NCBI RefSeq assembly: GCF_021442385.1
Contig: NZ_MUZA01000030.1
Location: 1-64,000, forward strand
Direction: 5' to 3'
Source of the DNA: Micromonospora sp. MH99
GTDB lineage: Bacteria; Actinomycetota; Actinomycetes; Mycobacteriales; Micromonosporaceae
DNA length: 64,000 bases
Shown: one piece after another, positions 14,328 through 48,934 of the stretch
How the letters are laid out: each line of letters starts with the position of its first letter
Position numbering within the stretch: the first letter of the stretch is position 1
Notes under the pieces: model-generated
Database searches by the model: none
The model's input: the letters and a program-made list of their open reading frames with translations, nothing else
Told to the model about the DNA's origin: nothing
Made by a program: the position numbers and the translations under genes

Positions 14328-15881
14328 TCACCGCACGAATTCTGCGGCTCCGGTAGCCAGGTCGAGCAGCGGACCAGGGGCGACACCCAGCACCAGGGTG
14401 GCCAGCACGCCGACCATCAGCGCGGCGGACGTGAGGCCGCCCGGCACGGTGACCGTCGGCGTGGACTCGCCCGGCTCGGACAGCCACATCATCACCACGA
14501 CCCGCAGGTACGGGAACGCCAGCACCATGCTGGTCAGCACACCCGCGATGACGAGCCAGGCCTGACCGCCGTCCAGCGCCGGCCCGAAGACCGCGAACTT
14601 GCTGGTGAAGCCGCTGGTCAGCGGGATACCGGCGAACGCCAGCAGGATGAACGTGAACAGCCCGGCGTAGAACGGCGAGCGCCGCCCCAGCCCGGCCCAG
14701 CGGGACAGGTGGGTGGCCTCGCCGTCGGCGTCGCGCACCAGGGTCACCACCGCGAACGCGGCCAGCACCGAGAAGCCGTACGCGACCAGGTAGAACATCG
14801 TGCCGGAGAGCCCGTCCCGGCTCGGCGCCAGCACACCGACCAGCAGGTAGCCGGCGTTGGCGATCGAGGAGTACGCGAGCAGCCGCTTGATGTCCGTCTG
14901 GGTGACCGCCAGCACCGCGCCGACCAGCATGGTCAGCACCGCCACCGCACCGAGCACCGGCGTGAAGTCCCAGCCCCCGCCCTCGAACGCGACGTGGAAG
15001 ACGCGCAGCAGCGCGCCGAACGCCGCGACCTTGGTGCAGGCGGCCATGAAACCGGTGATCGGCGTCGGCGCACCCTGGTAGACGTCCGGCGTCCACACGT
15101 GGAACGGGGCGGCGGCGGCCTTGAAGAGCAGACCGATGGCGAGCAGCGCCATGCCGGCGAAGAGCAGCACCTGGCTGGCCGGCGACTCGCTCACCGCCGC
15201 GTTGACGGTGGCGAAGTCGACACCTGCCGAACGGCCCGGAACACCTGCGGTGAAGCCGTAGATCAGGGCCACCCCGAACAGGAAGAACGCCGAGGCGTAC
15301 GCGCCGAGCAGGAAGTACTTCATCGCCGCTTCCTGGCTCAGCAGACGCCGGCGGCGGGCCAGCGCGCAGAGCAGGTACAGCGGCAGGGAGAAGACCTCCA
15401 GCGCGATGAACATGGTCAGCAGGTCGTTCGCCGCCACGAAGATCAGCATGCCGCCGATCGCGAACGTGATGAGCGGGTAGACCTCGGTGAGCCCGTTGCG
15501 CCCCTCGGCCTGCTTCCGGTCGTCGGCGGACTCGGCGGTCACCGCGGCCTGGGCGACGAACGCGCCGCCCCGCTCGACGGTACGGTCACCGATCAGCAGC
15601 AGCGCCATCGCGGCCAGCACCAGGATGGCGCCCTGGAGGAAGAGCGTCGGCCCGTCCACCGCGATGGCCTGACCGGCCGTGACGAGCCGGTCGTCGGCGT
15701 TGAGGACCACCATGGTCAGCGCGGCGAGGACGGCCAGCAGCGCCAGCGTCAGCTGCACGACGTGCCGCGAGCGCCGCGGCACGAACGCCTCGACGAGCAC
15801 ACCGAGCAACGCGGTGCCCAGCATGATCATGATCGGGGCGAGTGCCGCGTAGTCGAGCGACGGCAATTTCAACTCGGTCAC
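14328..15881 (-). CDS. nuoN: NADH-quinone oxidoreductase subunit N
   Basis: This is a 517-residue antiporter-like membrane subunit of complex I with about 14 membrane helices. It carries the conserved segments VEAFVPRRSRHVVQ, LEVFSLPLYLLCA, KAAAAPFHVWTPDVYQGAPTP and DIKRLLAYSSIANAGY, including the helix-breaking and proton-channel lysines. The GTG at 15881 (MTELKLPSLDYAAL) lies 8 bases after GGAAGG supplied by the intergenic repeat. It is the last gene of the operon and is followed by a hairpin. Confidence 0.96.
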   Translation of the reverse strand: MTELKLPSLDYAALAPIMIMLGTALLGVLVEAFVPRRSRHVVQLTLALLAVLAALTMVVLNADDRLVTAGQAIAVDGPTLFLQGAILVLAAMALLLIGDRTVERGGAFVAQAAVTAESADDRKQAEGRNGLTEVYPLITFAIGGMLIFVAANDLLTMFIALEVFSLPLYLLCALARRRRLLSQEAAMKYFLLGAYASAFFLFGVALIYGFTAGVPGRSAGVDFATVNAAVSESPASQVLLFAGMALLAIGLLFKAAAAPFHVWTPDVYQGAPTPITGFMAACTKVAAFGALLRVFHVAFEGGGWDFTPVLGAVAVLTMLVGAVLAVTQTDIKRLLAYSSIANAGYLLVGVLAPSRDGLSGTMFYLVAYGFSVLAAFAVVTLVRDADGEATHLSRWAGLGRRSPFYAGLFTFILLAFAGIPLTSGFTSKFAVFGPALDGGQAWLVIAGVLTSMVLAFPYLRVVVMMWLSEPGESTPTVTVPGGLTSAALMVGVLATLVLGVAPGPLLDLATGAAEFVR

Positions 15882-15993
15882 TGGGCCAGCCTTCCGTTCG
15901 CGACTGCGCAAGCCTCTGCCCGCGACTGCGGGGCTCGCTTCGCTCTCTCCTCGCGCGGGCGCTGGGGGCTCCGCTTCGCTGCACTCCTCGCGC
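15882..15993 (-). repeat. nuo intergenic repeat, copy A (long form, nuoM/nuoN)
   Basis: These 112 bases fill the gap exactly from the nuoM stop to the nuoN start. On the coding strand it begins GCGCGAGGAGTGCAGCGAAG right after the TGA and ends in CGCGAACGGAAGG, which supplies the nuoN ribosome site. An internal second copy of the GCGCGAGGAG and GCAGTCGCG blocks makes this the long form, like copy C. Confidence 0.88.
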
Positions 15994-17529
15994 TCACCGC
16001 TGCGCCTCCTGGACGGTGCCGCCCACGGACGGGGCCGGGTCGGTTCTGCCGATGTCGTCCATGGTCGCCTGGACGGCCGGGTTGATCACATCGGTGACCG
16101 GCTTGGGATAGAAGCCGAGCAGCACGATCAGCGCGATCAGCGGGGCGACCACCACCTTCTCGCGCAGGTTGAGGTCCCGGCGCATCCCGTCGACCTCGGT
16201 CAGCGCCGGATTGAGCGTGCCCTGCGTGGTGCGCTGCACCATCCACAGCACGTACGCCGCCGCCAGGATGATGCCGACGGTGGCGATGACCGCCACCGGC
16301 TTGTTCACCGTGAAGGTGCCGATCAGCACCAGGAACTCGGAGATGAACGGCGCGGTGCCGGGCAGCGCGAGCGAGGCGAGACCGGCGAAGAACAGCACGC
16401 CGGCGAGCACCGGGACCAGCTTGCCGGCGCCACCGAAGTCACTGATCAACGACGAGCCGCGCCGGGAGATCAGCATGCCGACCACCAGGAACAGCAGGCC
16501 GGTGGCCAGACCGTGGTTGAGCATGTAGAGCACCGCGCCCGTGCCGGCCTGCGTGGTGAAGGCGAAGATGCCCACCCCGATGAACCCGAAGTGCGCGATC
16601 GACGTGTACGACACGAGCCGCTTGAGGTCGTTCTGGCCGACCGCCAGCAGCGCCGCGTAGATGATGCCGATCACGCCCAGCGCCAGCGCCCACGGCGCGA
16701 ACCACTTCGACGCCTCCGGGAACAGCGGCAGGCAGTAGCGCAGGATCCCGAACGTGCCGACCTTGTCCAGCACGCCGACCAGCAGCGCGGCGGCACCCGC
16801 CGGGGCGGCGCCACCGGCGTCCGGCAGCCAGGTGTGGAACGGGAAGAACGGGGCCTTGATGGCGAACGCGAGGAAGAAGCCGAGGAACAGCCACCGCTCG
16901 GTGCCGGTGCTGATGTCCACCTGCGACAGCGCCTGCCAGTCGAAGGTCTTCCCGCCGACCACCCAGAGGCCGATCACCGCGGCCAGCATGAACAGGCCGC
17001 CGACCAGCGAGTAGAGGAAGAACTTCACTGCCGCGTACTGCCGCTGGTGACCTCCGTAGCTGCCGATCAGGAAGTACATCGGCACCAGCATGACCTCGAA
17101 GAACACGTAGAACAGGAAGACGTCGGCGGCCGCGAAGACGCCGATCATCGTGCTCTCGAGGATCAGCAGCAGCGCGAAGTAGACCGGAATGGACCGCTTG
17201 GAGGACTCCGCGTCGTGCCAGGAGGCCAGGATCACCAGCGGCACCAGCACCGCGATCAGCATGAGCATCACCAGCGCGATGCCGTCGGCGGCGAACGTGA
17301 AGCTGACGCCCCAGTTCGGGATCCAGGTGTACGACTCCCGGAACTGGAACCGGTCACCGCCCGCGTTGAAGCTGACCCACATCACCACCGAGAGCACCAG
17401 CACCAGCAGCGACCAGACGAACGCCACCTGCTTGGCCAGCTCCGGCCGGTGGCGCGGCAGGAAGGCCACCACCAGGGCGCCCACCAGCGGCGCCACGGTG
17501 AGCACCGAGAGGAACGGGAAGTTGGACAT
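15994..17529 (-). CDS. nuoM: NADH-quinone oxidoreductase subunit M
   Basis: This is a 511-residue proton-pumping antiporter-like subunit of complex I with about 14 membrane helices. Diagnostic segments are SWHDAE, FYVFFEVMLVPMYFLIG (channel glutamate), AIKAPFFPFHTWLPDA and DLKRLVSYTSIAHFGF. The ATG at 17529 follows GGAGG about 11 bases upstream. A 64-base gap separates it from nuoL. Its stop codon runs directly into intergenic repeat copy A. Confidence 0.97.
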   Translation of the reverse strand: MSNFPFLSVLTVAPLVGALVVAFLPRHRPELAKQVAFVWSLLVLVLSVVMWVSFNAGGDRFQFRESYTWIPNWGVSFTFAADGIALVMLMLIAVLVPLVILASWHDAESSKRSIPVYFALLLILESTMIGVFAAADVFLFYVFFEVMLVPMYFLIGSYGGHQRQYAAVKFFLYSLVGGLFMLAAVIGLWVVGGKTFDWQALSQVDISTGTERWLFLGFFLAFAIKAPFFPFHTWLPDAGGAAPAGAAALLVGVLDKVGTFGILRYCLPLFPEASKWFAPWALALGVIGIIYAALLAVGQNDLKRLVSYTSIAHFGFIGVGIFAFTTQAGTGAVLYMLNHGLATGLLFLVVGMLISRRGSSLISDFGGAGKLVPVLAGVLFFAGLASLALPGTAPFISEFLVLIGTFTVNKPVAVIATVGIILAAAYVLWMVQRTTQGTLNPALTEVDGMRRDLNLREKVVVAPLIALIVLLGFYPKPVTDVINPAVQATMDDIGRTDPAPSVGGTVQEAQR

Positions 17530-17593
17530 TATGCGGCCTTACCTCCGTCGTGGATGCGTGGTCCGCCGGCGGGGGCGGGCGTATTCAGGTCGA

Positions 17594-19519
17594 TCACGCC
17601 AACCACCCCGCCTGCACCGCCAGGAACGCCGCCATCACCAGCAGCGCACCGGCCAGGATCGAGGTGGCGTACGAGCGGACGAAACCGGTCTGCAGCCGCC
17701 GGAGCCGGCCCGAACCGCCGCCGACGCCAGCGGCGAGACCGTTGACCAGCCCGTCGATGCCCCGGTTGTCGAGGAAGACCAGCGCCCGGGTGAGGAAGAT
17801 GCCCGGCTTCTCGAAGACCGCCTCGTTGACCGCGTCGGTGTAGAGGTTGCGGCGGGCGGCGGTGACCAGCACCCCGGCCGGCTGCGACGCGGTGGCCGTA
17901 CCGGCCCGGAACAGGAACCAGGCGAGGCCCGCGCCGAGCACGGTCACCAGCAGCGACAGCGTGGTGATCACGAGGTGCGAGAGGACCGGCTCGTGCTCGG
18001 CGTGCTCACCGCCCAGACCGGCGGTGGAGGTCAGCCAGTCCGGAACGGACGTGGAGAGCAGGAAACCGGCGCCGACCGAACCGACCGCCAGCAGGATCAG
18101 CGGGATGGTCATCAGCTTCGGCGACTCGTGCGGGTGCTCGATGTCCTCGGTCCACCGCTTCGGGCCGTGGAAGGTGAGCACGAACAGCCGCGTCATGTAG
18201 AACGCGGTCAGCCCCGCGCCGAGCAGCGCCGCACCACCGAAGAGCCAGGCCGTCCAGTCGTCCCGCTCGAAGGCGGCCACGATGATCGGCTCCTTCGAGA
18301 AGAAGCCCGAGAACGGGAACATGCCGATGATGGCCAGCCAGCCCATCATGAACGTCAGCCAGGTGACCTTCATGTACGTCGACAGCCCACCGAAGCGGCG
18401 GATGTCCACCTGGTCCTTCATCCCGTGCATGACCGAACCGGCGCCCAGGAACATGTTGGCCTTGAAGAAGCCGTGCGCCAGCAGGTGCACGATAGCCAGC
18501 GCGTACGCGCCACCACCCAGGCCGACGCCGAGGAACATGTAGCCGATCTGGCTGACCGTCGACCAGGCCAGCACCCGCTTGATGTCGTCCTTCGCCGCGC
18601 CGATGATGCAGCCCATCAGCAGGGTGAGCGCACCGACGCTGACCACCACGAGCTGGAGCGTCGAGTTGGCGGAGAAGATCGGGTTCGACCGGGCGATCAG
18701 GTAGACGCCGGCGGTGACCATCGTGGCGGCGTGGATGAGCGCCGACACCGGGGTGGGGCCCTCCATCGCGTCCGGCAGCCACGCCTGGAGCGGGAACTGG
18801 CCGGACTTACCGGCCGCACCGAGCAGCAGCAGCAGGCCGAGCACCAGCACCGTGGTGCCGGTCAGCGCGCCGACACCGTTGAACACCTCGTCGTACTGGG
18901 TGGTGCCCAGGGTCGCGAACATGATGAAGATGCCGATGGCGAGGCCGGTGTCGCCGACCCGGTTCATCAGGAACGCCTTCTTGCCGGCCGTGGCGGCGCT
19001 CGGCCGCCCGTACCAGAAGGAGATCAGCAGGTACGACGCCAAACCGACGCCCTCCCAGCCGAAGTACAGCATCACGTAGTTGTTGCCGAGCACCAGCAGC
19101 AGCATGGCCGCGACGAACAGGTTGAAGTACGCGAAGAACCGGCGGCGACCCGCGTCGTGCGCCATGTACTCGACGGCGTACAGGTGGATCAGGAATCCGA
19201 CGCCCGTGATCAGGAGGACGAAGACCGCGGCCAGCGGGTCGAACAGCAGGCCGAAGTCGACCCGCAGGTCACCGACCGCGATGAAGTCCCAGAGGCTCAG
19301 CTCGGCCGACTTGTTCTCCAGGCCGCGCAGCTGGAAGAAGGACGCCAGCCCGAGCACGAACGCGGCCCCGATGGCCGCGACGCCCAACCAGTGCCCCCAG
19401 CGGTCGGCCCGCCGGCCGAGCAGCAGCAGGATGGCCGCGCTGACCAGCGGGATCGCCACCAGCAGCCAGACGCTGCCGAGCAAGCCCGTGGCCTCTGCGT
19501 ACTGCACAGTCTCTTCCAC
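17594..19519 (-). CDS. nuoL: NADH-quinone oxidoreductase subunit L
   Basis: This is the 641-residue distal antiporter-like subunit of complex I, with about 16 membrane helices and the long amphipathic C-terminal lateral helix. It shows RRFFAYFNLFVAAML, FGWEGVGLASYLLISFWY, GKSGQFPLQAWLPDAMEGPT, HAATMVTAGVYLIAR and DIKRVLAWSTVSQIGYM, all typical. The ATG at 19519 is 11 bases after the nuoK stop. Length is normal for the family. Confidence 0.97.
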   Translation of the reverse strand: MEETVQYAEATGLLGSVWLLVAIPLVSAAILLLLGRRADRWGHWLGVAAIGAAFVLGLASFFQLRGLENKSAELSLWDFIAVGDLRVDFGLLFDPLAAVFVLLITGVGFLIHLYAVEYMAHDAGRRRFFAYFNLFVAAMLLLVLGNNYVMLYFGWEGVGLASYLLISFWYGRPSAATAGKKAFLMNRVGDTGLAIGIFIMFATLGTTQYDEVFNGVGALTGTTVLVLGLLLLLGAAGKSGQFPLQAWLPDAMEGPTPVSALIHAATMVTAGVYLIARSNPIFSANSTLQLVVVSVGALTLLMGCIIGAAKDDIKRVLAWSTVSQIGYMFLGVGLGGGAYALAIVHLLAHGFFKANMFLGAGSVMHGMKDQVDIRRFGGLSTYMKVTWLTFMMGWLAIIGMFPFSGFFSKEPIIVAAFERDDWTAWLFGGAALLGAGLTAFYMTRLFVLTFHGPKRWTEDIEHPHESPKLMTIPLILLAVGSVGAGFLLSTSVPDWLTSTAGLGGEHAEHEPVLSHLVITTLSLLVTVLGAGLAWFLFRAGTATASQPAGVLVTAARRNLYTDAVNEAVFEKPGIFLTRALVFLDNRGIDGLVNGLAAGVGGGSGRLRRLQTGFVRSYATSILAGALLVMAAFLAVQAGWLA

Positions 19520-19530
19520 TCGCTTGCCCC

Positions 19531-19830
19531 TTAGTACTTGAGCAGGTTGGCGTCGTCGACACTCGCCGAGCGCCGGGTCCGGAAGATGGACATGATGATC
19601 GCGAGGCCGACGACGACCTCGGCCGCGGCCACCACCATCACGAAGAACGCCATGATCTGGCCGTTGAGGTCACCGTTGATACGGCTGAAGGTGACCAGCG
19701 TCAGGTTGGCCGCGTTGAGCATCAGCTCGACACACATGAACAGCACGATCGCGTTGCGCCGGATGAGCACCCCGGACGCGCCGATGGTGAACAGCACCGC
19801 CGCCAGCACGAGGTAATGATTGGGCGTCAT
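19531..19830 (-). CDS. nuoK: NADH-quinone oxidoreductase subunit K
   Basis: This is a 99-residue membrane subunit with three helices; the membrane-embedded glutamates are in [15 protein letters not shown] and [11 protein letters not shown]. It takes part in coupling the quinone site to proton pumping. The ATG at 19830 uses the AAAGG of intergenic repeat copy B, with a longer spacer (11 bases) than the other repeat-preceded genes. Confidence 0.97.
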
Positions 19831-19888
19831 CGCTGGGCCAGCCTTTCGTTCGCGACTGCGGGGCTCCGCTTCGCTGCACTCCTCGCGC
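19831..19888 (-). repeat. nuo intergenic repeat, copy B (short form, nuoJ/nuoK)
   Basis: These 58 bases fill the gap from the nuoJ stop to the nuoK start. They read GCGCGAGGAGTGCAGCGAAG then GCCCCGCAGTCGCGAACG and AAAGGCTGGCCCA on the coding strand, nearly identical to the ends of copy A. Confidence 0.88.
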
Positions 19889-20659
19889 TCACCTGTCGGT
19901 CCCCTTCAGCGTGGTCTCCTGCGCGGTCAGCTCGCGGACCGGCAGGATGTCCGGCGTGCTCCGCTCGGTGAGCCGGCCGTCCGGCAACCGTGCCGGGGTG
20001 GCCACCGAGGAGGAGGTGGCGAAGACGCCGGGGCCCGGCTTGGGCCCGGGGTAGTTGCCCGGCGCGAAGCGCGCCCGCATGGTCGACACCTGGTCGACCT
20101 TGTCCTGCTTACGCCGCTCGATGTGCGCGAGCACCATGGCGCCGACCGCCGCGGTGATCAGCAGCGCCGAGGTCAGCTCGAACGCGAAGACGTACTTGGT
20201 GAACAGCAGCCGGGCGATGCCCTGCACGTTGCCCTCGGCGTTGGCCTGGTCCAGGCCGACCGCAGTGGTCTTGTCCATGGCGTTGTAGACGGCGGTGCCG
20301 ACCAGGCCGGCGAAGCCGAGCCCCAGCAGGATCGCGGCGACCCGCTGGCCGCGCAGCGTCTCGATCAGCGAGTCGGAGGAGTCCCGACCGACCAGCATCA
20401 GCACGAACAGGAAGAGCATCATGATCGCGCCGGTGTAGACGATGATCTGCACCATGCCGATGAACGGCCCGGCCTGGAGCACGTAGAACACGCCCAGGCA
20501 GAGCATCGTGAGCACCAGCCAGAGCGCCGAGTGCACCGCGTTGCGGGCCGCCACCATCCCGATCGCGCCGATGAGCGCGAGCGGCGCGAGGATCCAGAAG
20601 GTGACCTCCTCGCCGCCGGACACACCGCCCGCCGCGGCCAGCACCGTAGACGTGGTCAT
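19889..20659 (-). CDS. nuoJ: NADH-quinone oxidoreductase subunit J
   Basis: This is a 256-residue membrane subunit with five helices in the first 180 residues ([45 protein letters not shown]) and a hydrophilic C-terminal tail of about 75 residues, as in other actinobacteria. The ATG at 20659 overlaps the nuoI stop (ATGA). The stop codon continues directly into intergenic repeat copy B. Confidence 0.96.
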
Positions 20660-21297
20660 GCTCCCTCTCCCTTGCCGGCCGCCGCGCGCTGGGCGGCCTG
20701 CTCGGCACCCGGGAACGTCACGCCGGGGTGCTCCTCGACCTGATAGCGGCCGGGACCCATGGGGGACGTCTCGGCACCGGCGGAGGTGCCCGGGTTGTCC
20801 AGCGCGCCGACGTAGTAGTCCTTCTCGCTGTCGCCCAGTCGCATCGGGTGCGGCGGCTGCTCCATGCCCTCGAGCAGCGGAGCGAGCAGCTGCTCCTTCG
20901 TGAAGATCAGGTCCTGCCGGTTGTCCCGGGCCAGCTCGTACTCGTTGCTCATCGTGAGCGAACGGGTCGGGCAGGCCTCGATGCAGAGCCCGCAGAAGAT
21001 GCACCGCGCGTAGTTGATCTGGTAGGTGCTGGCGAACCGCTCACCGGGCGAGAAACGCTGCTCGTCGGTGTTGTCGCCACCCTCGACGTAGATCGCGTCC
21101 GCCGGGCAGGCCCAGGCGCACAGCTCGCAGCCGATGCACTTCTCCAGGCCGTCCGGGTGCCGGTTGAGGATGTGCCGCCCGTGGTAGCGCGGCGCCGACA
21201 CCGGCGGCTTGAACGGATAGTCGGTGGTGACGACCTTCCTGAACATGTGCGAGAAGGTGACACCGAATCCCTTGAACGTTCCGGTGATCGCGCCCAC
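20656..21297 (-). CDS. nuoI: NADH-quinone oxidoreductase subunit I
   Basis: This is a 213-residue iron-sulfur subunit of the peripheral arm. It holds two [4Fe-4S] clusters (N6a and N6b): Cys54, 57, 60, 64 ([12 protein letters not shown]) and Cys99, 102, 105, 109 ([12 protein letters not shown]). The C-terminal 70 residues form a Pro/Gly-rich tail that is typical of actinobacterial forms. The GTG at 21297 is one base after the nuoH stop. Confidence 0.97.
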
Positions 21298-21298
21298 G

Positions 21299-22651
21299 TC
21301 ACACCTCCCTGGAGTCCGAGCCGGCGACGATGTTGGCCGGCTCCCGCTCGGCGACCACGCGCGTGATACGCGGGCTCGGTGGTACCTGTAGATCCATCGG
21401 CGGCAACGGGAAGCTCCCGTACGGCCGGTTGTCGACCTGTTCCTGCGTCGTCGGCGTCGGCTGCGGCTTCCGACTCGGCCAGAAGAGCGTGGCGATCAGC
21501 GCGATGCCGGCCGGAATGCCGACCGCGATCGCCTTGCCCTTCCAGTCCCAACCCTCGATGGAACGCAGGCCCGACAGGACCAGGATCCAGACCAGGTTGA
21601 TCGGCAGCAGCACCTTCCAGCCGAAGCGCATGAACTGGTCGTAGCGCAGCCGAGGCAGCGTGCCACGCAGCCACACGAAGACGAAGACCAGCGCGATCAC
21701 CTTGCCGAAGAACCAGAGCATCGGCCACCAACCGGAGTTGGCGCCCTCCCACAGCGTGATCGGCCACGGCGCCCGCCAGCCGCCCAGGAACAGCGTGGTG
21801 GTGACCGCGGACATGGTCACCATGGCGACGTACTCGCTGAGCATGAAGAGCGCGAACTTCAGCGAGCTGTACTCCGTCATGAAGCCGGCGACCAGCTCCG
21901 ACTCGGCCTCGGGCAGGTCGAAGGGCGCCCGGTTGGTCTCGCCGACGGTGGCGATGAAGAAGATGATGAAGCTGGGCAGCAGCAGGATCGCGTACCAGCC
22001 CGGCGCCGGGATCTCGTAGCCGCCGATGGTCAGCCGGGTGGCGTCACCCTGGGCCGCGACGATCCCGCTCGTGCTCATCGTGCCGGCAGTCATGAAGACG
22101 GCCACGATGGAGAGTCCCATGGCGACCTCGTACGAGATCATCTGGGCGCTCGACCGCAGGCCGCCGAGCAGCGGGTACGTCGAGCCGGAGGCCCACCCGC
22201 CCAGCACGATGCCGTAGACGCCCATCGAGGAGCAGGCCAGCAGCAGCAGCACCGCCACCGGCACGTCGGTGACCTGCAACGGCGTGTGGTGACCGGCGAT
22301 GCTCACCATCGGGCCGAACGGCACCACCGACAGGGCGGTGACCGCGCAGATCACTGAGATCGTCGGGGCGAAGAAGTAGACGACCTTGTCGGCCGCCTTC
22401 GGCAGGATGTCCTCCTTGAAGGCCATCTTGAGGCCGTCGGCGAGGGTCTGCAGCAGGCCGAACGGGCCGACCTGGTTGGGGCCGGGCCGCACCTGCATGT
22501 AGCCCACCACGCGCCGCTCGAACCAGACACCGAGCAGGGTGGCCAGCAGACCGAAGGCGAACGCGAAGACGATCTTGCCAAGGACCAGCCACCACGGATC
22601 CCGACCGAAGTCGGCGAGCGTCGGGTCCTGGGCCAGGAGTGACGGTGTCAC
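21299..22651 (-). CDS. nuoH: NADH-quinone oxidoreductase subunit H
   Basis: This is a 450-residue membrane subunit that forms much of the quinone-binding chamber. It shows [55 protein letters not shown] and [18 protein letters not shown]. The last 50 residues are a hydrophilic extension ([11 protein letters not shown] onward) typical of actinobacteria. The GTG at 22651 overlaps the nuoG stop (GTGA). Confidence 0.97.
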
Positions 22652-25209
22652 TGGTTACCCCCAGTGTTGAGCAGCGGACCCGGGAGACCGGCCTCGTCCG
22701 CCGCGGCCCGCCCGGCCGGAACGGTAGCGCTCGGGCCGGGAACGGAGATCCGGACGACCGTGCCGGATGCCGCCCCGAGGCTGCGCCGCACTGTCGAACC
22801 GGGTGAGTTGGTCGGCAGCCAGACGACGCCGTCCGGCATCTCGGTCAGCTCCGCCGGCAGGGTCAGCGCCCCGCGGTCGGTGCCCACCGTGACCGCGTCC
22901 CCGTCGGCGACACCGAGCGCCTCGGCGGTGCCCTTGCCCAGCCGGACGGCCGGCGGGCGGGCGGTGCCGGCGAGGTGCTCGTCGCCGTCGGTCAGGGTGC
23001 CGAGGTCGACCAGCTGGTGCCAGGTCGCCAGCACTGCCTCCCCGGCACGCGGGTGCGGCACCGTCCCCGGCGACACCGACGGTGCGGACGGCCGGGACGT
23101 GCGCGTGGCGGGCAGCGAGCCCAGCTCGCGACGCACACTCGGCACGTCGGCGGTGCCGAGCCGCACGTCGAGCAGGGCGGCCAGCGCGTCGAGCACCCGA
23201 CCATCGGTCATCGCGGCCGTGTTCAGCACCGCCTCGAACGGACGCAGGCGGCCCTCCCAGTCCAGGAAGCTGCCGGCCTTCTCGACCACCGGCGCCACCG
23301 GCAGCACCACGTCGGCCCGGCGGGTGACCGCGCTCGCGCGCAGTTCCAGGCTGACCAGGAACGGCACCGCGTCCAGAGCGGACTCGGCCAGCCGCGGGTC
23401 GGCCAGGTCGGCCGGGTCGACACCGCCGACCACCAGCGCACCGAGCTGCCCGTTGGCCGCCGCCGCGAGGATGCCGTCGGTGTCCCGACCGGCCTGGCTC
23501 GGGATCACCCCGGCCGGGATGTCCCACGCCTCGCCCAGCTCGGCCCGCGCCGCCGGCTCGGTGACCAGTCGGCCACCGGGGAGCAGGTTGGGCAGGCAGC
23601 CGGCGTCGACAGCGCCGCGGTCACCCGCGCGCCGCGGCACCCAGGCCAGCTTCGCGCCGGTACGCCGGGCCACGTCGGCCGCGGCGGAGAGCCCGCCCGG
23701 CACGGTGGCCAGCCGCTCACCGACGATGAGGATCGCGCCCGGGGCGCTGAGCGCCTCGGTGACCGTGGCGTGCTCGGCGAGCACGCTGGCCTCCTCGCCC
23801 GGCACGACCCGGGCCAGCTTGGCGCCGAGCTTCTCCAGGCCGCGGGTGGCGAACGGCGCCAGCGCGTACACCGTCAGGGTCTTCTTGAGGTACGCCTTGC
23901 GCAGCCGCAGGAAGAGGATCGGGCACTCCTCCTCCGGCTCCAGGCCGACCAGCACCACCGCCGGCGCGTTCTCCACGTCGGTGTAGGTGACGTCGGTGAC
24001 CCCGGCGACCGAGCTGGCCAGGAAGTCGGCCTCCTCGCGGGAGACCGGCCGGGCCCGGAAGTCGATGTCGTTGGTGTTCAGGGCGACGCGGGCGAACTTG
24101 GCGTACGCGTACGCGTCCTCGACGGTCAGCCGACCGCCGGTGAGCACCGCAGTGCCCTGGCCGCCCTCGCGGGCCGCGTGCAGCCCCTCGGCGGCCCGGG
24201 TCAGCGCCTCACTCCAGGACGCCTCCCGCAGCTCACCGGTGTGCTCGTCGCGGACCAGCGGGTTGGTCAGGCGGTCGGCGGCGCGGGTGTACTGGAAACC
24301 CCAGCGGCCCTTGTCGCAGTTCCACTCCTCGTTCACCGCCGGCTCGTCACCGGCGAGCCGGCGCAGCACCTTGCCGCGCCGCCAGTCGGTGCGCTGCCCG
24401 CAGCCGGCCGAGCAGTGCTCGCAGACGCTCGGGCTGGACACCAGGTCGAACGGGCGGGCCCGGAACCGGTACTGCGCGCCGGTCAGTGCGCCCACCGGGC
24501 AGATCTGCACGGTGTTGCCGGAGAAGTAGGAGTTGAACGGCACGTCTCCACCGGCGAAAGCCGGAGCGCCAGCGGAGGCCGAGTCGGTGCGGCCAGCACT
24601 GCCGTCGTCCGCCTTCCCTCCATACGCGTCGTCCCGGTAGATGTTGATCTCCTCGGCGGACGACCGGCCCATCAGGTCGATGAACTTGTCGCCGGCGATC
24701 TCCTCGGAGAACCGGGTGCAGCGCTGGCACAGCACGCACCGCTCGCGGTCCAGCAGCACCTGGCTGCTGATCGCCATCGGCTTCTCGTACTCCCGCTTGT
24801 GCTCGTGGAAGCGCGAGTCGGTGCGGCCGGTGGACATCGCCTGGTTCTGCAGCGGGCACTCGCCGCCCTTGTCACACATGGGGCAGTCCAGCGGGTGGTT
24901 GAGCAGCAGCAGCTCCATCACCCCCTCCTGCGCCTTCTTGGCGACCGGCGAGGTGAGCTGGGTGCGGACCACCATGCCGTCGGCGACGGTCTGGGTGCAG
25001 GAGGCGACAGGCTTGCGCTGCCCCTCCACCTCGACCAGGCACTGGCGGCACGCGCCGGCCGGGGCCAGCAGCGGGTGATCGCAGAACCGGGGGATCTCGG
25101 TGCCCATCTGCTCGGCGGCCCGGATCAGCAGCGTCCCCTTCGGGGCGGTGACCTCGACGCCGTCGATGGTGAGCGTGACGGTTTCGGTCTGCTTGGCTAC
25201 GTCGGTCAT
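22648..25209 (-). CDS. nuoG: NADH-quinone oxidoreductase subunit G
   Basis: This is the 853-residue large iron-sulfur subunit. The N-terminal [2Fe-2S] site uses Cys43, 54, 57 and 71. It is followed by the His/Cys cluster ligands around [13 protein letters not shown] (109-118), [17 protein letters not shown], and a further four-cysteine motif CEHCSAGCG in the molybdopterin-type domain, which would hold the extra N7-type cluster. The rest is the oxidoreductase-like domain, ending in a molydopterin-dinucleotide-binding-like beta domain. Its start overlaps the nuoF stop by one base (TGATG). Confidence 0.96.
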
Positions 25210-26525
25210 CAGTGCGCCCCTACCAGGGTCTTCTCCGACAGCTTGGGTGCGGTACGTCCCTCGATGTAGTCGAGGTAGTCCTGCTTGAAGTACTTCAGCG
25301 ACGAGGTCACCGAGCTGGTCGCACCGTCACCGAGGCCGCAGAACGAGCGGCCGAGGATGTTGTCGCAGGTGTCCAGAAGGGTGTCCAGGTCCTCGTGGGT
25401 GCCCTGACCCGAGAGGATCCGCCGGTAGACCCGGACCATCCAGTAGTTGCCCTCGCGGCACGGGGTGCACTTGCCGCACGACTCGTGGTGGTAGAACTCC
25501 AGCCACCGGTACGTCGCGTAGACCGGGCAGTCCTGGTCGGAGAAGATCTGCGTGGCAGTGGTGCCGAGGATCGAGCCGGCCGCCGCCACCCCCTCGAAGT
25601 CCAGTGGCACGTCCAGGTGCTCGGCGGCGAGCAGCGGGGTGGACGAGCCGCCCGGGGTCCAGAACTTCAGGTTGTGGCCGGGCTGCATGCCACCGGCCAG
25701 CTCCAGCAGTTCGCGCAGCGTGATGCCCATCGAGCACTCGTACTGGCCGGGGTTGTTGATGCGGCCGGAGAGCGAGTAGATCATCGGGCCGGAGGACTTC
25801 TCGGTGCCCATGGTCTTCCACCAGTCGGCGCCACCGAGCACGATCGGCGGCACGCTGGCGATGGTGCCGACGTTGTTGACCACCGTCGGGCTCGCGTACA
25901 GGCCGTGGGTGGCCGGGAACGGCGGGCGCAGCCGGGGCTGACCCCGGAACCCCTCCAGCGAGTCCAGCAGCGCCGTCTCCTCGCCGCAGATGTACGCCCC
26001 GGCGCCGGAGTGCACCACCAGCTCCAGGTCGTAGCCGCTGCGCAGGATGTTCCGGCCGAGGTAGCCCTTGTCGTACGCCTCCTGGACCGCGTTGCGCAGC
26101 CGGCGTGCGGCGTGCACCGCCTCGCCCCGGATGTAGATGTACGCGCGGCTGGCCCGGATCGCGTACGACGCGATGATCACGCCCTCGACCAGCGCGTGCG
26201 GGTCGTGGGTCATCAGCGGCAGGTCCTTGCAGGTGCCCGGCTCGCCCTCGTCGGCGTTGACCACCAGGTAGTGCGGCTTGCCGTCGCCCTGCGGGATGAA
26301 GCCCCACTTGAGGCCGGTGGGGAAGCCGGCGCCACCGCGACCGCGCAGACCGGAATCCTTGATCAGCTGGATCAGGTCGTCCGGGTGTGCCTTGAGTGCC
26401 TTGCGCAGCGCGGCGTAGCCGTCGAGCTGCTCGTACGTGCCGATCCGCCAGGCGTCCGGCGACAGCCAGCGCTTGGTCAGCACCGGCGTCAGCTTGGCCA
26501 GCGTCTCCGGGCGGGGAGTGGTCAC
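25209..26525 (-). CDS. nuoF: NADH-quinone oxidoreductase subunit F
   Basis: This is a 438-residue subunit that binds NADH and FMN and passes electrons to the [4Fe-4S] cluster N3. The nucleotide and flavin motifs [15 protein letters not shown] and [13 protein letters not shown] are intact, and the cluster ligands [12 protein letters not shown] plus a downstream Cys (RSFCGLGDG) are present. The GTG at 26525 overlaps the nuoE stop (GTGA). Confidence 0.97.
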
Positions 26526-27685
26526 TTCTGGGCCCCCGTTTCGCTCGCGTCCGCCGATCCGGCGCCGTCGGCGTCCGTTCCGGCCTTCGCTTCGGTGAGG
26601 TTGCGCTCCTGCGCCCCGGCTTCGTCGCCGGCGGGCTTGCCGTCGCCGGCCGGCGGGTTGGCGGCCGCGCCGGCGGCCTCGGCCGACCGTGCGTCGCCAG
26701 CTTCGGGCGCCGTGCCGGTGCCGTCCACCGGAACCTTGGTGCCAGGAGCGTCCGGCACCGCCGTGCCCGCGTCCGGCTGCCGGGTCTCGGCGGTACGCAC
26801 CTGCGGCGACTTGTCGTCAGGTGCCTTGACGTCAGGTGCGGTGCTGCCGGTGGCGGCCTCCGGCTTCGCCGGCTCGGCGACCCCGGTCGGGGCGGACGCG
26901 CCGTCGCCACCCTTGACCGGTGCCGCGCTGGCCTCAGCGGGCGCCGGCTTGGCGGCCTCCGCCTTCGCCTTCGCCTCGGCGGCGGCCTTGTCGGCCTCGG
27001 CCTTGCTGCGGATCGGGGTGTTCGGGTCGAAGCCCGGCACCGAGACGTTGTGCTCCTGCGCCAGCCGCAGACCCTGCAGGGTCGGCTCGCCCGGCCCGCC
27101 GTCGGCTACCGCGCCGTCGCGCTCGTCGGCGAAACCGGCGAGCTGCACCGCCATCTCCTTGAGCGTGCAGAGCCGCGCCCCGCGCGTCGGCATCGGCCGG
27201 CCACCCGCGCGCAGCTCGTCGACCACGCCGACCGCCGTGGACGGATCCACGCCGTCGAAGAAGTCGTAGTTGACGGTCATCACCGGGCCGTAGTCGCAGG
27301 CCGCCAGGCACTCGGCGTGCTCCAGCGTGATCGTGCCGTCCGCGGTCGTCTCGTCGTGCCCGACACCCAGATGCTCGACGAGGGTGTCGTAGACCTCCTG
27401 GCCGCCCAGCACGTTGCACATCGTGTTGGTGCAGACGCTGACCAGGAAGTCACCGGTGGGCTTGCGCTTGTACATCGTGTAGAAGGTGGCAACCGCGCCG
27501 ACCTGGGCCTTGTTCAGCCCGAGCACCTCGGCGCAGAACGTGACCCCGGCCGGGGACACGTACCCCTCCTCGGCCTGGACCAGGTGCAGCAGCGGCAGCA
27601 GCGCCGAGCGGGACCGGTCCGCCGGATAGCGGGCGATGATCTCGCGTGCCCGCTCCCGCGTCTCATCAGTGAAGACAACACTCAT
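26522..27685 (-). CDS. nuoE: NADH-quinone oxidoreductase subunit E with long Ala/Pro-rich C-terminal tail
   Basis: The first about 225 residues are a normal thioredoxin-fold NuoE with [2Fe-2S] ligands Cys85, Cys90, Cys126 and Cys130 (CTNTMC, CLAAC). The gene then continues for about 160 residues of Ala/Pro/Glu/Lys/Thr-rich sequence without hydrophobic segments, giving 387 residues where about 160-260 is usual. The tail begins with the charged [18 protein letters not shown] stretch and remains in frame and GC-biased. Its function is unknown. The start overlaps the nuoD stop (ATGA), and the stop overlaps the nuoF start. Confidence 0.95.
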
Positions 27686-29007
27686 CGGTCACAACCACCC
27701 ATCACGGGGTCCAGCGAGGCGCCGCCGGCGATCACGTCGGCGATGAGGCCACCCTCGGCCATCGCCGGGAGGGCCTGGAGGTTGACGAAGCTCGGCTCCC
27801 GGTAGTGCACCCGGTACGGCCGGGTGCCGCCGTCGGAGACCGCGTGCACGCCCAACTCGCCGCGGGGCGCCTCGATGGCGACGTACACCTGGCCGGGCGG
27901 AACCCGGAAACCCTCGGTCACCAGCTTGAAGTGGTGGATCAGCGACTCCATCGACTGACCCATGATCTTCGCGACGTGCTCCAGCGAGTTGCCCATGCCG
28001 TCGACGCCGATGGCGAGCTGCGCGGGCCACGCGATCTTGCGGTCGGCGACCATCACCGGGCCCGGCCGCAGCCGGTCCAACGCCTGCTCGACCAGCTTCA
28101 TCGACTCGCGGATCTCGGCGAGCCGCACCTGGTAGCGACCCCACACGTCGCCGTCGGGGTGGGTCGGCACGTCGAACTCGTACGTCTCGTAGCCGCAGTA
28201 CGGCATGGTCTTGCGAAGGTCCCAGGCGAGCCCGGCCGAACGCAGCACCGGACCGGTGATGCCGAGCGCCACGCAGCCGGTCACGTCCAGCACCGCGACG
28301 TTCTTCGTCCGTTCGAGCCAGATGGGCTGACCGGAGAGCAGGTCCTCGTACTCCTTGAGCTTCTTCGGCATCATCTTCAGGAACTCGCGGATCTTGACGA
28401 TCGCCTCGTCCGGCACGTCCTGCGCGACACCGCCCGGGCGGACGTACGCGTGGTTCATCCGCAGGCCGGTGATGGTCTCGAAGATGTCGAGGATGTACTC
28501 CCGCTCGCGGAAGCCGTACAGCATGATCGAGATCGCGCCCAGCTCCATGCCGGTGGTGGCCAGCCAGACCAGGTGCGACGAGATCCGGTTGAGCTCCATC
28601 ATCAGCACGCGGATGGTGGTGGCCCGCTCGGTGATGTCGTCGGTGATGCCGAGCAGCTTCTCGACCGCGAGGGCGTAACCCGTCTCGTTGAAGATCGGGG
28701 CGAGGTAGTCCATCCGGGTCACGAACGTCGAACCCTGGACCCAGTTGCGGTATTCGAGGTTCTTCTCGATGCCGGTGTGCAGGTAGCCGACGACCGAGCG
28801 GGCCTCGCGGACCGTCTCGCCCTCCAGCTCCAGGATCAGTCGCAGCACCCCGTGCGTGGACGGGTGCTGCGGACCCATGTTGACCACGATCCGCTCGTCG
28901 TTGATCGGGTCGGTGCCCGAGACGACAGTGTCCCAGTCCCCACCGGTGACGGTGAAGACCCGGCCCTCGGTGGTCTCGCGTTCGGTCGCGTAGTTCGACG
29001 TGGTCAC
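27682..29007 (-). CDS. nuoD: NADH-quinone oxidoreductase subunit D
   Basis: This is a 441-residue peripheral-arm subunit, related to hydrogenase large subunits, that lines the quinone headgroup site. Motifs include [20 protein letters not shown] (quinone-site His), [30 protein letters not shown], and the C-terminal DPVMGGCDR. The GTG at 29007 uses GGAAGG from intergenic repeat copy C, 8 bases upstream. Reading further upstream in this frame only translates the repeat. Confidence 0.97.
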
Positions 29008-29119
29008 AGCACCGGCCTTCCGTTCGCGACTGGGTGGTCCCCTGCCCGCGACTGCGGGGCTCGCTCCGCTCGCTCCTCGCGCGGGCGGATGGGGCGCCGA
29101 CCTGCTGCACTCCTCGCGC
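29008..29119 (-). repeat. nuo intergenic repeat, copy C (long form, nuoC/nuoD)
   Basis: These 112 bases fill the gap exactly from the nuoC stop to the nuoD start. It has the same length as copy A and the same order of blocks (GCGCGAGGAGTGCAGC, CGCCCGCGCGAGGAG, GCCCCGCAGTCGCGGGCAG, CAGTCGCGAACGGAAGGC), but differs in the segments between blocks. Confidence 0.88.
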
Positions 29120-29857
29120 TCACTGGTACGACCTCCTGCGGTCCGGCGGCGGGATCTCGGCGCCCTTGTACTCGACAGGCACGCCACCGAGCGGGTAGTC
29201 CTTGCGCTGCGGGTGGCCCTCCCAGTCGTCCGGCATGAGGATCCGGGTCAGGTTGGGGTGGCCGTCGAAGACGATGCCGAACATGTCGTACGCCTCCCGC
29301 TCCTGCCAGTCCGCGGTCGGGTAGATGGCGGTGACGCTGGGCAGGTGCGGAGCTTCGACGGAGACCGCGGCCTCCAGCCGGATCCGACGTCGGTAGGTCA
29401 TCGAGGTGAGCAGGTAGACCACATGCAGCCGGCGCTCGTCGGCGCCGAGGTAGTCCACCCCGGACACCGAGGAGCACAGCTCGAAGCGCAACGCCAGGTC
29501 GTCCCGCAGCACCTGGCAGACCTCGGCGATCCGCTCCGGGCGGACGTGCAGGGTCAGCTCGCCCCGGTCGACGACCACCTTCTCGATCGCGTCGCCGAAG
29601 GCCGGGTACGCCTCTTCGAGAGCGTCGCGGACCTCGTCGAAGTAGCCCCCGTACGGGCGGGACGCCTCCTCGATGGGCTGGCGCTGGCGGACCAGGCCGC
29701 CGTAGCCGGACACGTCGCCCGTGCCCTGGTTGCCGAACATGCCGCGCCCCGCCGGGCTGGACGGCGGGTACTCGGCCGGGGCGGTGCCTCTGGCGCCGGC
29801 CGGGGTGACCGGCACCGGCACACCCCCGTCGTTGGTCCTGTCGTTCGGTGCGGTCAC
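29120..29857 (-). CDS. nuoC: NADH-quinone oxidoreductase subunit C
   Basis: This is a 245-residue peripheral-arm subunit of the 30-kDa family. The signature [23 protein letters not shown] is present as [18 protein letters not shown], with [15 protein letters not shown] near the end. The first 75 residues are a disordered Gly/Pro-rich extension that is common in actinobacteria. The GTG at 29857 lies 8 bases after GGAGGG supplied by intergenic repeat copy D. Confidence 0.96.
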
Positions 29858-29912
29858 TGCGCCTGCCCTCCGTTCGCGCCTGCGGGGCTCCGCTTCGCTG
29901 CACTCCTCGCGC
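29858..29912 (-). repeat. nuo intergenic repeat, copy D (short form, nuoB/nuoC)
   Basis: These 55 bases fill the gap from the nuoB stop to the nuoC start. They read GCGCGAGGAGTGCAGCGAAG, then GCCCCGCAGGCGCGAACGG and AGGGCAGGC, almost the same as copy B. Confidence 0.88.
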
Positions 29913-30590
29913 TCACTTGGGGCCCCGCTGCGCGTGAAGGTGGTTCTGGGCGTTCATCCAGTTCTCGATCCGCAACTGCTCCTCGCGCCCCTCGCGGACC
30001 GCCTGGGTCCACTCGGCACGCCGGGCCTTGTCGTTGCGGTACGAGGACGGCATGGAGCCGTACGGCACTACCGGAACGTCGCCGCGCTCCTGGCGGGCCG
30101 CCAGCATCTTGCGACCGTTCGGGCCCAGCGGCTCATACATGATCTTCTCGCGGAGCTTGAGGATCGCGTCGATGAGCATCTCCGGCCGGGGCGGGCAGCC
30201 GGGCAGGTACATGTCGACAGGCACGACGTGGTCGACGCCCTGGACGATCGCGTAGTTGTTGAACATGCCGCCGCTGCTGGCGCAGACGCCCATGGAGAGC
30301 ACCCAGCGGGGCTCGGCCATCTGGTCGTAGATCTGGCGCAGCACCGGCGCCATCTTCTGGCTCACCCGGCCGGCCACGATCATCAGGTCGGCCTGCCGGG
30401 GCGAGGCCCGGAAGACCTCCATGCCCCAGCGGCCCATGTCGTAGTGCGGACCACCGGCGGCCATCATCTCGATGGCGCAGCAGGCCAGGCCGAAGGTGGC
30501 GCCCCACACGGACGACTTCCGGGACCAGTTGACCAGCTTCTCCACCGAGGTGAGCAGGACGCCGGCGGGGAGCTTCTCCTCGATGCCCAT
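29913..30590 (-). CDS. nuoB: NADH-quinone oxidoreductase subunit B
   Basis: This is a 225-residue subunit that holds cluster N2, the last electron carrier before quinone. The ligands are Cys37 and Cys38 (LACCAIEM), Cys103 (GVCASSGG) and Cys132 (GCPPRPE). I chose the ATG at 30590 ([11 protein letters not shown]), 14 bases after the nuoA stop, with GGAACG upstream. The C-terminal 60 residues are a charged extension. The stop codon runs straight into intergenic repeat copy D. Confidence 0.97.
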
Positions 30591-30604
30591 CTGACGTTCC
30601 TTCC

Positions 30605-30970
30605 TCAGTCCCAGTCCAGGCCGCCGCGCCGCCACACATAGGCGTACGCGACGAAGACCGCGACGATGAACAGGACCATCTCCACGAAGCCGAAGATCGG
30701 CAGAGCGTCGAACGAGACCGCCCAGGGGTAGAGGAAGATGATCTCGATGTCGAAGACGATGAAGAGCATCGCCGTCAGGTAGAACTTGATCGGGAACCGG
30801 CCGCCGCCGACCGGCTGGGGGCTGGGCTCGATGCCGCACTCGTAAGCCTCGAGTTTGGCCTTGTTGTAGCGACGTGGACCGGCGAAGCGGGCGGCGCCGA
30901 CAGAGAACAGCGAGAACGCCGCGGCGAGGGCGAACAGCCCGATGATCGGTGCGTAAGGCGAGAGCGACAT
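30605..30970 (-). CDS. nuoA: NADH-quinone oxidoreductase subunit A
   Basis: This is a 121-residue membrane subunit with three helices and the quinone-site loop [11 protein letters not shown]. It is the first gene of nuo. The ATG at 30970 follows AGGAGA with a 6-base spacer. The 135 bases upstream (30971-31105) separate it from menJ on the same strand and should contain the nuo promoter, but no -35/-10 pair is convincing by eye; a TAGTGT hexamer on the minus strand near 31015-31025 is the best -10 candidate. Confidence 0.96.
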
Positions 30971-31105
30971 CGTTTTCTCCTGCTCGTCCTTCCCTGCCCT
31001 CGGTGCTTGACGAAAATCACACTATTCACGTCCCTCGCGGTGGCTGCCGGCGGGGGTCGATCTTTGTCGGCGTCGGGGCTGTGACCAGCACCGATGCCGT
31101 CCTGC

Positions 31106-43994: not shown

Positions 43995-44011
43995 TCAACT
44001 GCCGACCGCGG

Positions 44012-44137
44012 GCTGTCGGCTCGGCCCGACGGTCGGCTCGGCCCGGGGCTGCCGGCTCGGCCCGGCGGTTGGCTCGGCCCGGGGCTGTCGGCCTCGCCCG
44101 GGGCTGTCGGCTTGGCGCGGGCTGTCGGCCTGGCCCA
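44012..44137. repeat. Degenerate 18-bp tandem repeat
   Basis: About seven head-to-tail copies of an 18-19 base unit close to GGCTGTCGGCTCGGCCCGG lie between the convergent hydrolase and mqnA genes. Translation in any frame is low-complexity, and it is judged non-coding. Confidence 0.8.
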
Positions 44138-44173
44138 GCGGTCAGCGGGTCGCGGCAGGCTCGCGCCGGCTGC

Positions 44174-48826: not shown

Positions 48827-48934
48827 GACCGGCCAAGCTCACTCATCGCGAACCGGCCGAGCCCAGCAACCAAGCCCGGCGGCCCGTTCGCCCACGCCTA
48901 GCCAGGCCCCCCGACGCGCCGGCCCGCCCGGCTG

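What the first reader, a model, noticed from the sequence alone, without database searches (positions are those of the whole stretch)
15882..29912. One related sequence fills four gene junctions of the nuo operon from stop codon to start codon
The gaps nuoB/C (29858-29912, 55 nt), nuoC/D (29008-29119, 112 nt), nuoJ/K (19831-19888, 58 nt) and nuoM/N (15882-15993, 112 nt) all begin with GCGCGAGGAGTGCAGC immediately after the TGA and end with GCAGTCGCGAACG plus a GGAAGG/GGAGGG/GAAAGG ribosome site (GCAGGCGCGAACG in copy D) 8-11 bases before the next start. Two copies are short and two are long forms of equal length with an internal extra unit. All other nuo junctions are overlaps or short unrelated gaps. 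This looks like a small intercistronic element that has spread or been copied by recombination and now supplies the translation start of nuoC, nuoD, nuoK and nuoN. It may set subunit ratios or fold as an mRNA spacer. It also explains spurious N-terminal extensions that could be annotated for these genes.
Basis: seen in the sequence. Interest (0 to 1): 0.72.

Follow-up and report, generated by a model that had tools for sequence, protein, structure and literature searches.

The report
Start-codon-hopping repeat in Micromonospora operons
A roughly 59-letter repeat has inserted itself again and again between neighbouring genes in Micromonospora, at the point where one gene stops and the next starts, and it appears to carry a tiny reading frame that hands ribosomes from one gene to the next so that the insertion does little harm.

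Summary
The four nuo gaps (B/C, C/D, J/K, M/N) hold one element of a dispersed family: 41 exact left ends in this genome, 6-55 in each of 38 same-genus genomes (this one included). A longer pattern is absent from 131 genomes of other families of the order. Named hits (80 of 118 listed) are mostly Micromonospora. In 61 nuo operons seven junctions are polymorphic. Empty alleles are mostly NTGA stop/start overlaps (4 nt; 1 nt at F/G). Filled alleles carry the element between stop and start and add 2 mod 3 nt in 114 of 133 instances. This makes a mini-ORF that overlaps the upstream stop and the downstream start by 4 nt each. The register is kept although the core is read in two frames, so coupling seems to be kept, not a peptide. 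In young copies the sequence between core and start is a 13-15-nt direct duplication of the target's own Shine-Dalgarno (SD) region and start codon; unduplicated sites survive in relatives. No conserved RNA fold and no linked Y1 transposase were found. It works like the mycobacterial MIRU. Sequence kinship was not tested, and the mobiliser is unknown.

The parts
29854..29916 (-). nuoB/C copy, short form: mini-ORF of 21 codons including stop ([20 protein letters not shown]) from the GTG overlapping the nuoB stop to the TGA overlapping the nuoC start; gap 29858-29912
29004..29123 (-). nuoC/D copy, long form: 40-codon mini-ORF overlapping the nuoC stop and nuoD start by 4 nt each; gap 29008-29119
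29034..29090 (-). nested 57-nt related unit inside the nuoC/D copy (ends approximate)
   Evidence: coordinates counted by hand
19827..19892 (-). nuoJ/K copy, short form: 22-codon mini-ORF overlapping the nuoJ stop and the nuoK ATGA start; gap 19831-19888
15878..15997 (-). nuoM/N copy, long form: 40-codon mini-ORF overlapping the nuoM stop and nuoN start; gap 15882-15993
15908..15964 (-). nested 57-nt related unit inside the nuoM/N copy (ends approximate)
   Evidence: coordinates counted by hand
29913..30590 (-). nuoB (PF01058), upstream of the first copy
29120..29857 (-). nuoC (PF00329), flanked on both sides by copies
27682..29007 (-). nuoD (PF00346)
19889..20659 (-). nuoJ (PF00499)
19531..19830 (-). 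nuoK (PF00420)
15994..17529 (-). nuoM (PF00361)
14328..15881 (-). nuoN (PF00361)

Best explanation
This is a short mobile, MIRU-like repeat that lands at translation start sites. SHOWN: (1) A body of about 44-46 nt, GCGCGAGGAGTG...GCAGTCGCGAAC(..), sits directly after an NTGA where the upstream stop overlaps the downstream start. (2) In five clean young copies the 13-15 nt ending in that NTGA, i.e. the target's own SD region, spacer and start codon, is repeated on the right of the body; the net insertion is 59 bp in all five. (3) The upstream gene keeps its stop, the downstream gene keeps a start codon with an SD-like sequence, and a mini-ORF of about 20 codons fills the gap with 4-nt overlaps at both ends. 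(4) Net length is mostly 2 mod 3 although two core variants are read in different frames, so linker length compensates. INFERRED: ribosomes ending the upstream gene re-initiate on the mini-ORF and then on the downstream gene, so coupling survives and the insertion is tolerated. The element is mainly selfish, moved by an unidentified transposition-like or template-switching process that prefers initiation sites. Tandem arrays arise by unit duplication or re-insertion, and junction polymorphism by gain, loss and exchange between related genomes.
For: At B/C, C/D and M/N all 47, 41 and 29 alleles scored as empty are 4-nt NTGA overlaps; at J/K 39 of 45 are, the other 6 overlap by 1 nt. Filled alleles put the element exactly between TGA and start. 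69 of 79 filled copies at these four junctions hold one open mini-ORF ending on the TGA that overlaps the next start. Net insertion is 2 mod 3 in 114 of 133 filled nuo instances, and in 89 of 108 last units of named loci (0 mod 3: 16; 1 mod 3: 3; five more had no next NTGA). Linker is 17 nt with core offsets 25/28 (39 of 51 units); with offset 30 it is 15 or 18 nt, which keeps the register, in 55 and 14 of 100, and 16 nt, which is in frame, in 24. In 112 scored arrays of named loci the upstream coding frame ends at the element's TGA in 94, the downstream gene starts on the overlapping NTGA in 94, both in 76; the downstream strand agrees in 111. Sampled control NTGA sites: both in 30 of 1484 GTGA and 35 of 612 ATGA. 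Left/right duplication: exact match of 8 nt or more in 7 of 123 arrays, shuffled mean 0.116, maximum 2 in 1000; five of the seven are clean, each 59 bp apart. Unduplicated site: bioF/bioD of a relative with 98% identical BioD, and pyk/tesB empties. At least 83 state changes over seven nuo junctions in 61 operons.
Against: Most copies no longer show the duplicated linker, and by eye none of the window's four does; they are inferred to be old. Several other filled alleles of bioF/bioD and pyk/tesB lack it too. At nuoD/E the left base is G and the right start ATGA in 21 of 22 filled alleles, which a plain target-site duplication does not predict without a later change; six D/E alleles scored as empty (-13) and five J/K ones (ATGG) show no NTGA in my reading. 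37 of 166 units stand at the in-frame distance to the next NTGA instead of closing on it. In 15 arrays from other genera only 6 met both position criteria; several of these are chance matches of the 15-mer without the core. In relative L261 a copy lies inside the 3' end of nuoE, read through in frame. No mobiliser was found. No translation data were available. Filled alleles of one junction share their linkers across species, so the counts are not independent.
Confidence: 0.8

Rival explanations
1. Regulatory spacer: the element is kept because it weakens or tunes translation of the downstream subunit (nuoC, D, K, N), not because it is a tolerated parasite.
For: In filled nuo alleles the right-hand SD is weaker than the SD of empty alleles at G/H (-5.7 against -9.7), M/N (-6.0 against -10.3) and slightly J/K (-6.0 against -7.0 kcal/mol), so an effect on nuoH or nuoN is possible (five G/H start calls are uncertain).
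Against: Presence changes at least 7-16 times per junction among 61 genomes, and sister operons L237 (none filled) and L245 (five filled) differ widely. The same element sits in many unrelated operons, e.g. bioF/bioD and pyk/tesB. At B/C, C/D and D/E the right SD is about as strong as the empty-site SD.
Confidence: 0.15
2. The mini-ORF is a real small gene family whose peptide is selected.
For: It is open and in register in most copies.
Against: The same nucleotide core is read in frame 0 in 111 and frame 1 in 55 of 166 units, giving unrelated peptides (VSARSEPGLRAPQSR.. or VSARSELASPAVAN..). Tandem periods fall into a closing and a fusing register (30 and 21 of 53).
Confidence: 0.03
3. Spread only by homologous or microhomology-driven recombination (gene conversion, template switching between GTGAGCGCG starts), without a transposase.
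For: No mobiliser found. Some gene starts resemble the element's left end: GCGC follows the right NTGA in 17 of 105 copies. The right junction falls at purine-rich SD sequence (by eye). Units duplicate locally with their linker (by eye).
Against: Net length of exactly 59 bp in all five clean young insertions and duplication ending at NTGA look like a defined insertion reaction. One copy with a perfect 15-nt duplication (L300, argC/argJ) lies in a genus code (g38) whose 11 sampled genomes have 0-1 copies each.
Confidence: 0.3
4. REP/RAYT-type element moved by an IS200/IS605-like Y1 transposase.
For: Short, extragenic, high copy number; GGAG lies near the left end (recalled REP feature).
Against: Y1_Tnp (PF01797) was found in 13 of 41 genus genomes and not in this one, which has 41 exact copies; 24 of 24 Y1 loci carry no exact core or left end within the fetched flank of at most 1.5 kb a side. 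No conserved hairpin. Co-directional with the downstream gene in 111 of 112 arrays, not in alternating orientation.
Confidence: 0.03
5. Transcription terminator, RNA processing site or other structured RNA.
For: G+C-rich inverted pieces (CGCGA...TCGCG) can pair.
Against: z-scores -0.13 to +1.72 against shuffles. RNAalifold finds three pairs with no change on both sides. No Rfam match at gathering score in 15000-31000.
Confidence: 0.05

Closest known systems
MIRU, mycobacterial interspersed repetitive units (Supply et al. 1997, Mol Microbiol 26:991; known here through passages of the review PMC12548453 and of PMC4213456, the original paper not read)
   Same: Short repeat, apparently mobile, inserts at start codons so that an internal ORF is coupled to the gene at -4 nt (review passage). 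Several units side by side in one intergenic region, 77 and 53 bp long (PMC4213456 passage); both lengths are also 2 mod 3.
   Different: Other family of bacteria. Unit mostly 56-62 bp against 53/77 bp. Sequence not compared, because no MIRU sequence was at hand. Seen here and not known to me for MIRU: 13-15-nt duplication of SD and start, linker-length compensation between core variants, nested long form.
REP elements and their RAYT transposases
   Same: Short dispersed extragenic repeat without its own transposase gene
   Different: No conserved hairpin, one orientation relative to genes, no linked Y1 transposase
MITEs / non-autonomous IS derivatives
   Same: Duplicated target sequence; a short imperfect end repeat (CGCGA / TCGCG) by eye
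   Different: Body of only about 45 nt; no parent element identified; landing site nearly restricted to gene starts in transcription direction

Membership tests
MIRU | inserted at DTGA / start codon, overlapping stop and start | tested here: met
   DTGA wording recalled, start-codon wording from PMC12548453
MIRU | internal small ORF coupled at -4 nt to the neighbouring gene(s) | tested here: met
   69 of 79 filled copies at four nuo junctions; sequence architecture only, translation not measured
MIRU | local tandem arrays | tested here: met
   41 of 112 scored arrays have 2-4 units; periods 54-62
MIRU | mobility: filled and empty sites | tested here: met
   no movement observed in real time
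MIRU | sequence homology to the mycobacterial consensus | not tested
   no MIRU sequence obtained; the exact long pattern is absent from 131 of 131 other-family genomes of the order, whose names are unknown
REP/RAYT | imperfect palindrome | tested here: not met
   tested indirectly by folding:
REP/RAYT | cognate Y1 transposase in the genome, flanked by copies | tested here: not met
   absent from 28 of 41 genus genomes, this one among them; 0 of 24 Y1 loci with a copy in the fetched flank
MITE / IS derivative | target-site duplication | tested here: met
   13-15 nt in five clean young copies; excess over shuffles; not visible in most copies
MITE / IS derivative | terminal inverted repeats shared with an autonomous element | tested here: inconclusive
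   CGCGA/TCGCG seen by eye only; no parent sought beyond Y1

The most novel reading that the evidence does not exclude
The element moves by a reaction that recognises translation initiation sites themselves and duplicates them: SD, spacer and start codon are copied to the far side of a 45-nt body, so each insertion builds a ready-made coupled leader ORF of the right register. Target choice for SD plus NTGA in the sense direction would be intrinsic, perhaps made on mRNA or on DNA opened during expression, rather than only the survivors of selection.
Probability: 0.25. Interest if true: 0.88.

Novelty: new variant of a known kind. Interest (0 to 1): 0.66.

Why it matters
It gives a genome-wide natural experiment on translational coupling. 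The same operon junctions occur empty and filled in dozens of related species, and the kept register implies that ribosomes pass through the insert. It suggests that MIRU-like coupling repeats are not peculiar to mycobacteria. It also shows a footprint of how such a repeat enters, a duplicated ribosome-binding site, that could lead to the unknown mobiliser. In practice it marks a source of wrong start calls and of variable-number loci for typing.

Tried and rejected
RNA fold: single copies and a 57-sequence alignment gave nothing; that alignment held 57 of the 84 distinct nuo sequences listed, the other 27 left out by me as near-duplicates. Rfam: none at gathering score in 15000-31000. Y1 transposase: not linked. 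Viral contigs: 0 exact matches. Plasmids: one match, M. terminaliae pLB1, 81% identity.

My first working idea, that the element brings its own SD and decouples the genes, was dropped. A second idea, that the left GTGA belongs to the element and only the right NTGA to the target (based on nuoD/E), remains possible for that junction but is not the general picture.

The tallies 'ELEMENT' at E/F (1) and L/M (18) came from a loose core pattern and are not counted; my notebook calls them false positives. On re-checking, L261 does hold a clear long-form copy inside the 3' end of nuoE, which my junction scoring had read as an empty overlap. Eleven other nuoE ends and 14 L/M gaps resemble the core only weakly (up to 3 mismatches in 17) and may be decayed relics.

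Rows dropped: 11 of 123 arrays at contig edges; 49 arrays with a decayed unit within 75 nt upstream, which left another set of 123 (13 own, 80 named, 30 other); units without the exact core. Of the seven long duplications, L031 and L163 have unit-like left flanks and are not called clean. Junction states neither element nor overlap were left out of the tree counts: two at B/C, one each at C/D, F/G and G/H. Five G/H starts (GTGG) are probably set too early by the alignment.

Literature: (terms on Micromonospora with intergenic, palindromic, interspersed or tandem repeats, MIRU, DTGA, translational coupling). No listed title or abstract start describes this element, but lists were capped (20 of 215, 20 of 60, 15 of 40, 8 of 92), and subscription papers and preprints are not in that library. 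Seen as passages: PMC12548453 and PMC4213456; all others as search listings only. Supply et al. 1997 is cited from that review's reference list and from recall.
Full report
OBSERVATION. The four gaps are as described. The 16-mer GCGCGAGGAGTGCAGC occurs exactly four times in the window, each time directly after the TGA of nuoB, nuoC, nuoJ or nuoM, and 13 times in the whole genome against 0 for the reversed pattern. Pfam confirms the nuo genes on both sides of the gaps.

A DISPERSED FAMILY. With the shorter left end TGAGCGCGAGGAGTG this genome has 41 exact copies plus 2 with one mismatch. In a family-wide draw of 200 genomes all 38 of the same genus (this one included) have it, 6-55 copies each, with no reversed-pattern control hit. 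Of 162 genomes of other genera 43 have any, mostly 1-5, with 6-24 in 6 of 7 genomes of code g54 and in g58 and g59; single hits outside the genus are partly chance, since the reversed pattern also hits once in 14 of these genomes. A longer pattern was found in 15 of 15 same-genus, 1 of 4 same-family and 0 of 131 other genomes of the order. That the window itself is Micromonospora is an inference from this. The middle of the unit has several versions: CAGCGMAGCGGA as in the window, AGCTTGCGA, AGCCGGNNTTGCGA and AACGAGCGNAGCGAGTGA. The long form carries a related 57-nt unit at one place; 17 of 21 hits of that subtype in the held loci were nested.

EMPTY AND FILLED SITES. Seven junctions are filled in some and empty in others: B/C 12 filled, C/D 19, D/E 22, F/G 14, G/H 18, J/K 16, M/N 32 of 61. 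The empty state is mostly a 4-nt GTGA or ATGA overlap of stop and start. At F/G it is a 1-nt overlap (TGATGA or TAATGA), six J/K alleles also overlap by 1 nt, and six D/E alleles were scored at -13. A/B, H/I, I/J and K/L showed no copy. One relative (L261) has a long-form copy inside the 3' end of nuoE at E/F, read through in frame. On a FastTree of six nuo genes (8988 columns) at least 7, 16, 13, 10, 11, 13 and 13 changes are needed, 83 in all. Sister operons L237 and L245 differ at five junctions. Recombination within nuo would inflate such counts, and the counts do not tell gain from loss.

MINI-ORF AND REGISTER. In 69 of 79 filled copies at the four junctions of the finding, the GTG (twice ATG) that overlaps the upstream stop opens a frame that ends on the TGA overlapping the downstream start. 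In 166 units of named loci, 119 close this way, 37 stand at the in-frame distance to the next NTGA, 5 are in the third register and 5 have no next NTGA nearby. Last units: 59 nt (67), 56 (11), 60 (11), 62 (10) and others; 89, 16 and 3 of 108 in the three registers. Tandem periods: 30, 21 and 2 of 53. The conserved core is read in frame 0 in 111 units and frame 1 in 55. The linker is 17 nt in 39 of 51 units of the latter kind, and 15 nt in 55 of 100, 16 in 24 and 18 in 14 of the former. So total register, not the peptide, tends to be preserved. Shared ancestry makes formal p-values meaningless, but the compensation between variants is hard to explain otherwise.

POSITION. In 112 scored arrays of named loci the upstream coding frame ends at the element's TGA in 94, the downstream coding frame starts on the overlapping NTGA in 94, and both in 76; the downstream gene is on the same strand in 111. 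The coding-frame score was trained on the 14 nuo genes of the window. Many exceptions are in-frame fusions. Of 15 arrays from other genera 7, 8 and 6 met these criteria; several are chance matches of the 15-mer. Sampled control NTGA sites meet both conditions in 30 of 1484 (GTGA) and 35 of 612 (ATGA). In this genome 29 arrays in held loci were scored: 25, 22 and 18. A public annotation (M. terminaliae plasmid, 55-nt gap between an acyltransferase gene and a glycerol-3-phosphate dehydrogenase gene) agrees with the position.

HOW IT ENTERS. The 14 nt left of the first NTGA and the 14 nt left of the last NTGA resemble each other more than re-paired ones: 6.20 of 14 identical against 5.18 (sd 0.14, maximum 5.63 in 1000 shuffles), and exact matches of 8 or more in 7 of 123 arrays against a mean of 0.116. 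Five clean cases (argC/argJ, a cysteine desulfurase/TusA-like pair, bioF/bioD, pyk/tesB and an oxidoreductase-like pair; gene names by eye from the translations) each show a 13-15-nt direct repeat ending in GTGA, 59 bp apart. For bioF/bioD, the nearest relative (98% protein identity) has GAGTGTGCGCC only once and no body, though with a 9-nt repeat of its start region. For pyk/tesB, two filled genomes each carry their own version of the repeat and many relatives are empty. Several other filled alleles of these two junctions do not show the repeat. So in these young copies the sequence between core and start is a copy of the target's SD, spacer and start; that older copies began the same way is inferred. 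SD-like pairing is similar on both sides (-7.3 left, -6.7 right, -3.1 kcal/mol at random places).

MECHANISM. Shown: insertion point, duplicated initiation site in young copies, kept stop, kept start, mini-ORF and register. Inferred: translation of the mini-ORF and termination-reinitiation at both ends, which makes the insertion nearly silent. Unknown: the mobiliser. The Y1 family is unlikely to be it. Both transposition and template switching remain open.

COMPARISON WITH WHAT IS KNOWN. The review PMC12548453 says of MIRUs that they appear mobile and insert at start codons, with an internal ORF coupled at -4 nt, likely with minimal impact on expression. By its anatomy this element works the same way in another family of actinomycetes. 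Whether it is a MIRU by descent was not tested. The duplicated initiation site, the frame compensation and the nested long form are, as far as my searches reach, additional features; the original 1997 paper was not available to check.

VERDICT. Real, widespread and mechanistically informative. It is best filed as a MIRU-like variant, not as a regulatory RNA spacer.

Noticed in passing
window 17530-17593 (minus strand): The 64-nt nuoL/M gap recurs with the same length in many of the 61 operons and can be read as a small frame from the GTGA at the nuoL stop to a TAATG overlapping nuoM (VIDLNTPAPAGGPRIHDGGKAA*). In 14 relatives its 3' half resembles the element's core with up to 3 mismatches in 17, so it may be an ancient decayed copy.
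   Followed up: partly
L261 (nuoE/F boundary) and 11 other nuo loci: A long-form copy has become the in-frame 3' end of nuoE in L261; eleven others show only a weak core resemblance in the same place.
   Followed up: partly
window 48921-49165: Tandem array of about 3.3 copies of a 69-74-bp unit.
   Followed up: no
window 44009-44143: Tandem array with 17/36-bp periods, 3.7 copies of the 36-bp unit.
   Followed up: no
L237 and L245 (nuo operons of sister genomes): One sister has no filled nuo junction, the other five; suggests rapid precise loss or exchange.
   Followed up: no
L264, L245, L276, window 29034-29090 and 15908-15964: The long form has the extra 57-nt unit (a multiple of 3) at the same internal point (CCCC / GCAG), at several junctions, as if it were a composite subfamily of its own.
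   Followed up: partly
L300 (G231:C23, argC/argJ): A single copy with a perfect 15-nt duplication in a genus code whose 11 sampled genomes have 0-1 copies each; looks like a recent entry into another genus.
   Followed up: no
L121, L144, L192 and others among named loci: Copies at the in-frame distance would fuse the mini-ORF to the downstream protein and may mislead start calls.
   Followed up: no
L417 (M. terminaliae plasmid pLB1): A 24.9-kb plasmid record carries the element between two chromosomal-type genes, and the acyltransferase gene is listed twice with the same protein accession.
   Followed up: no
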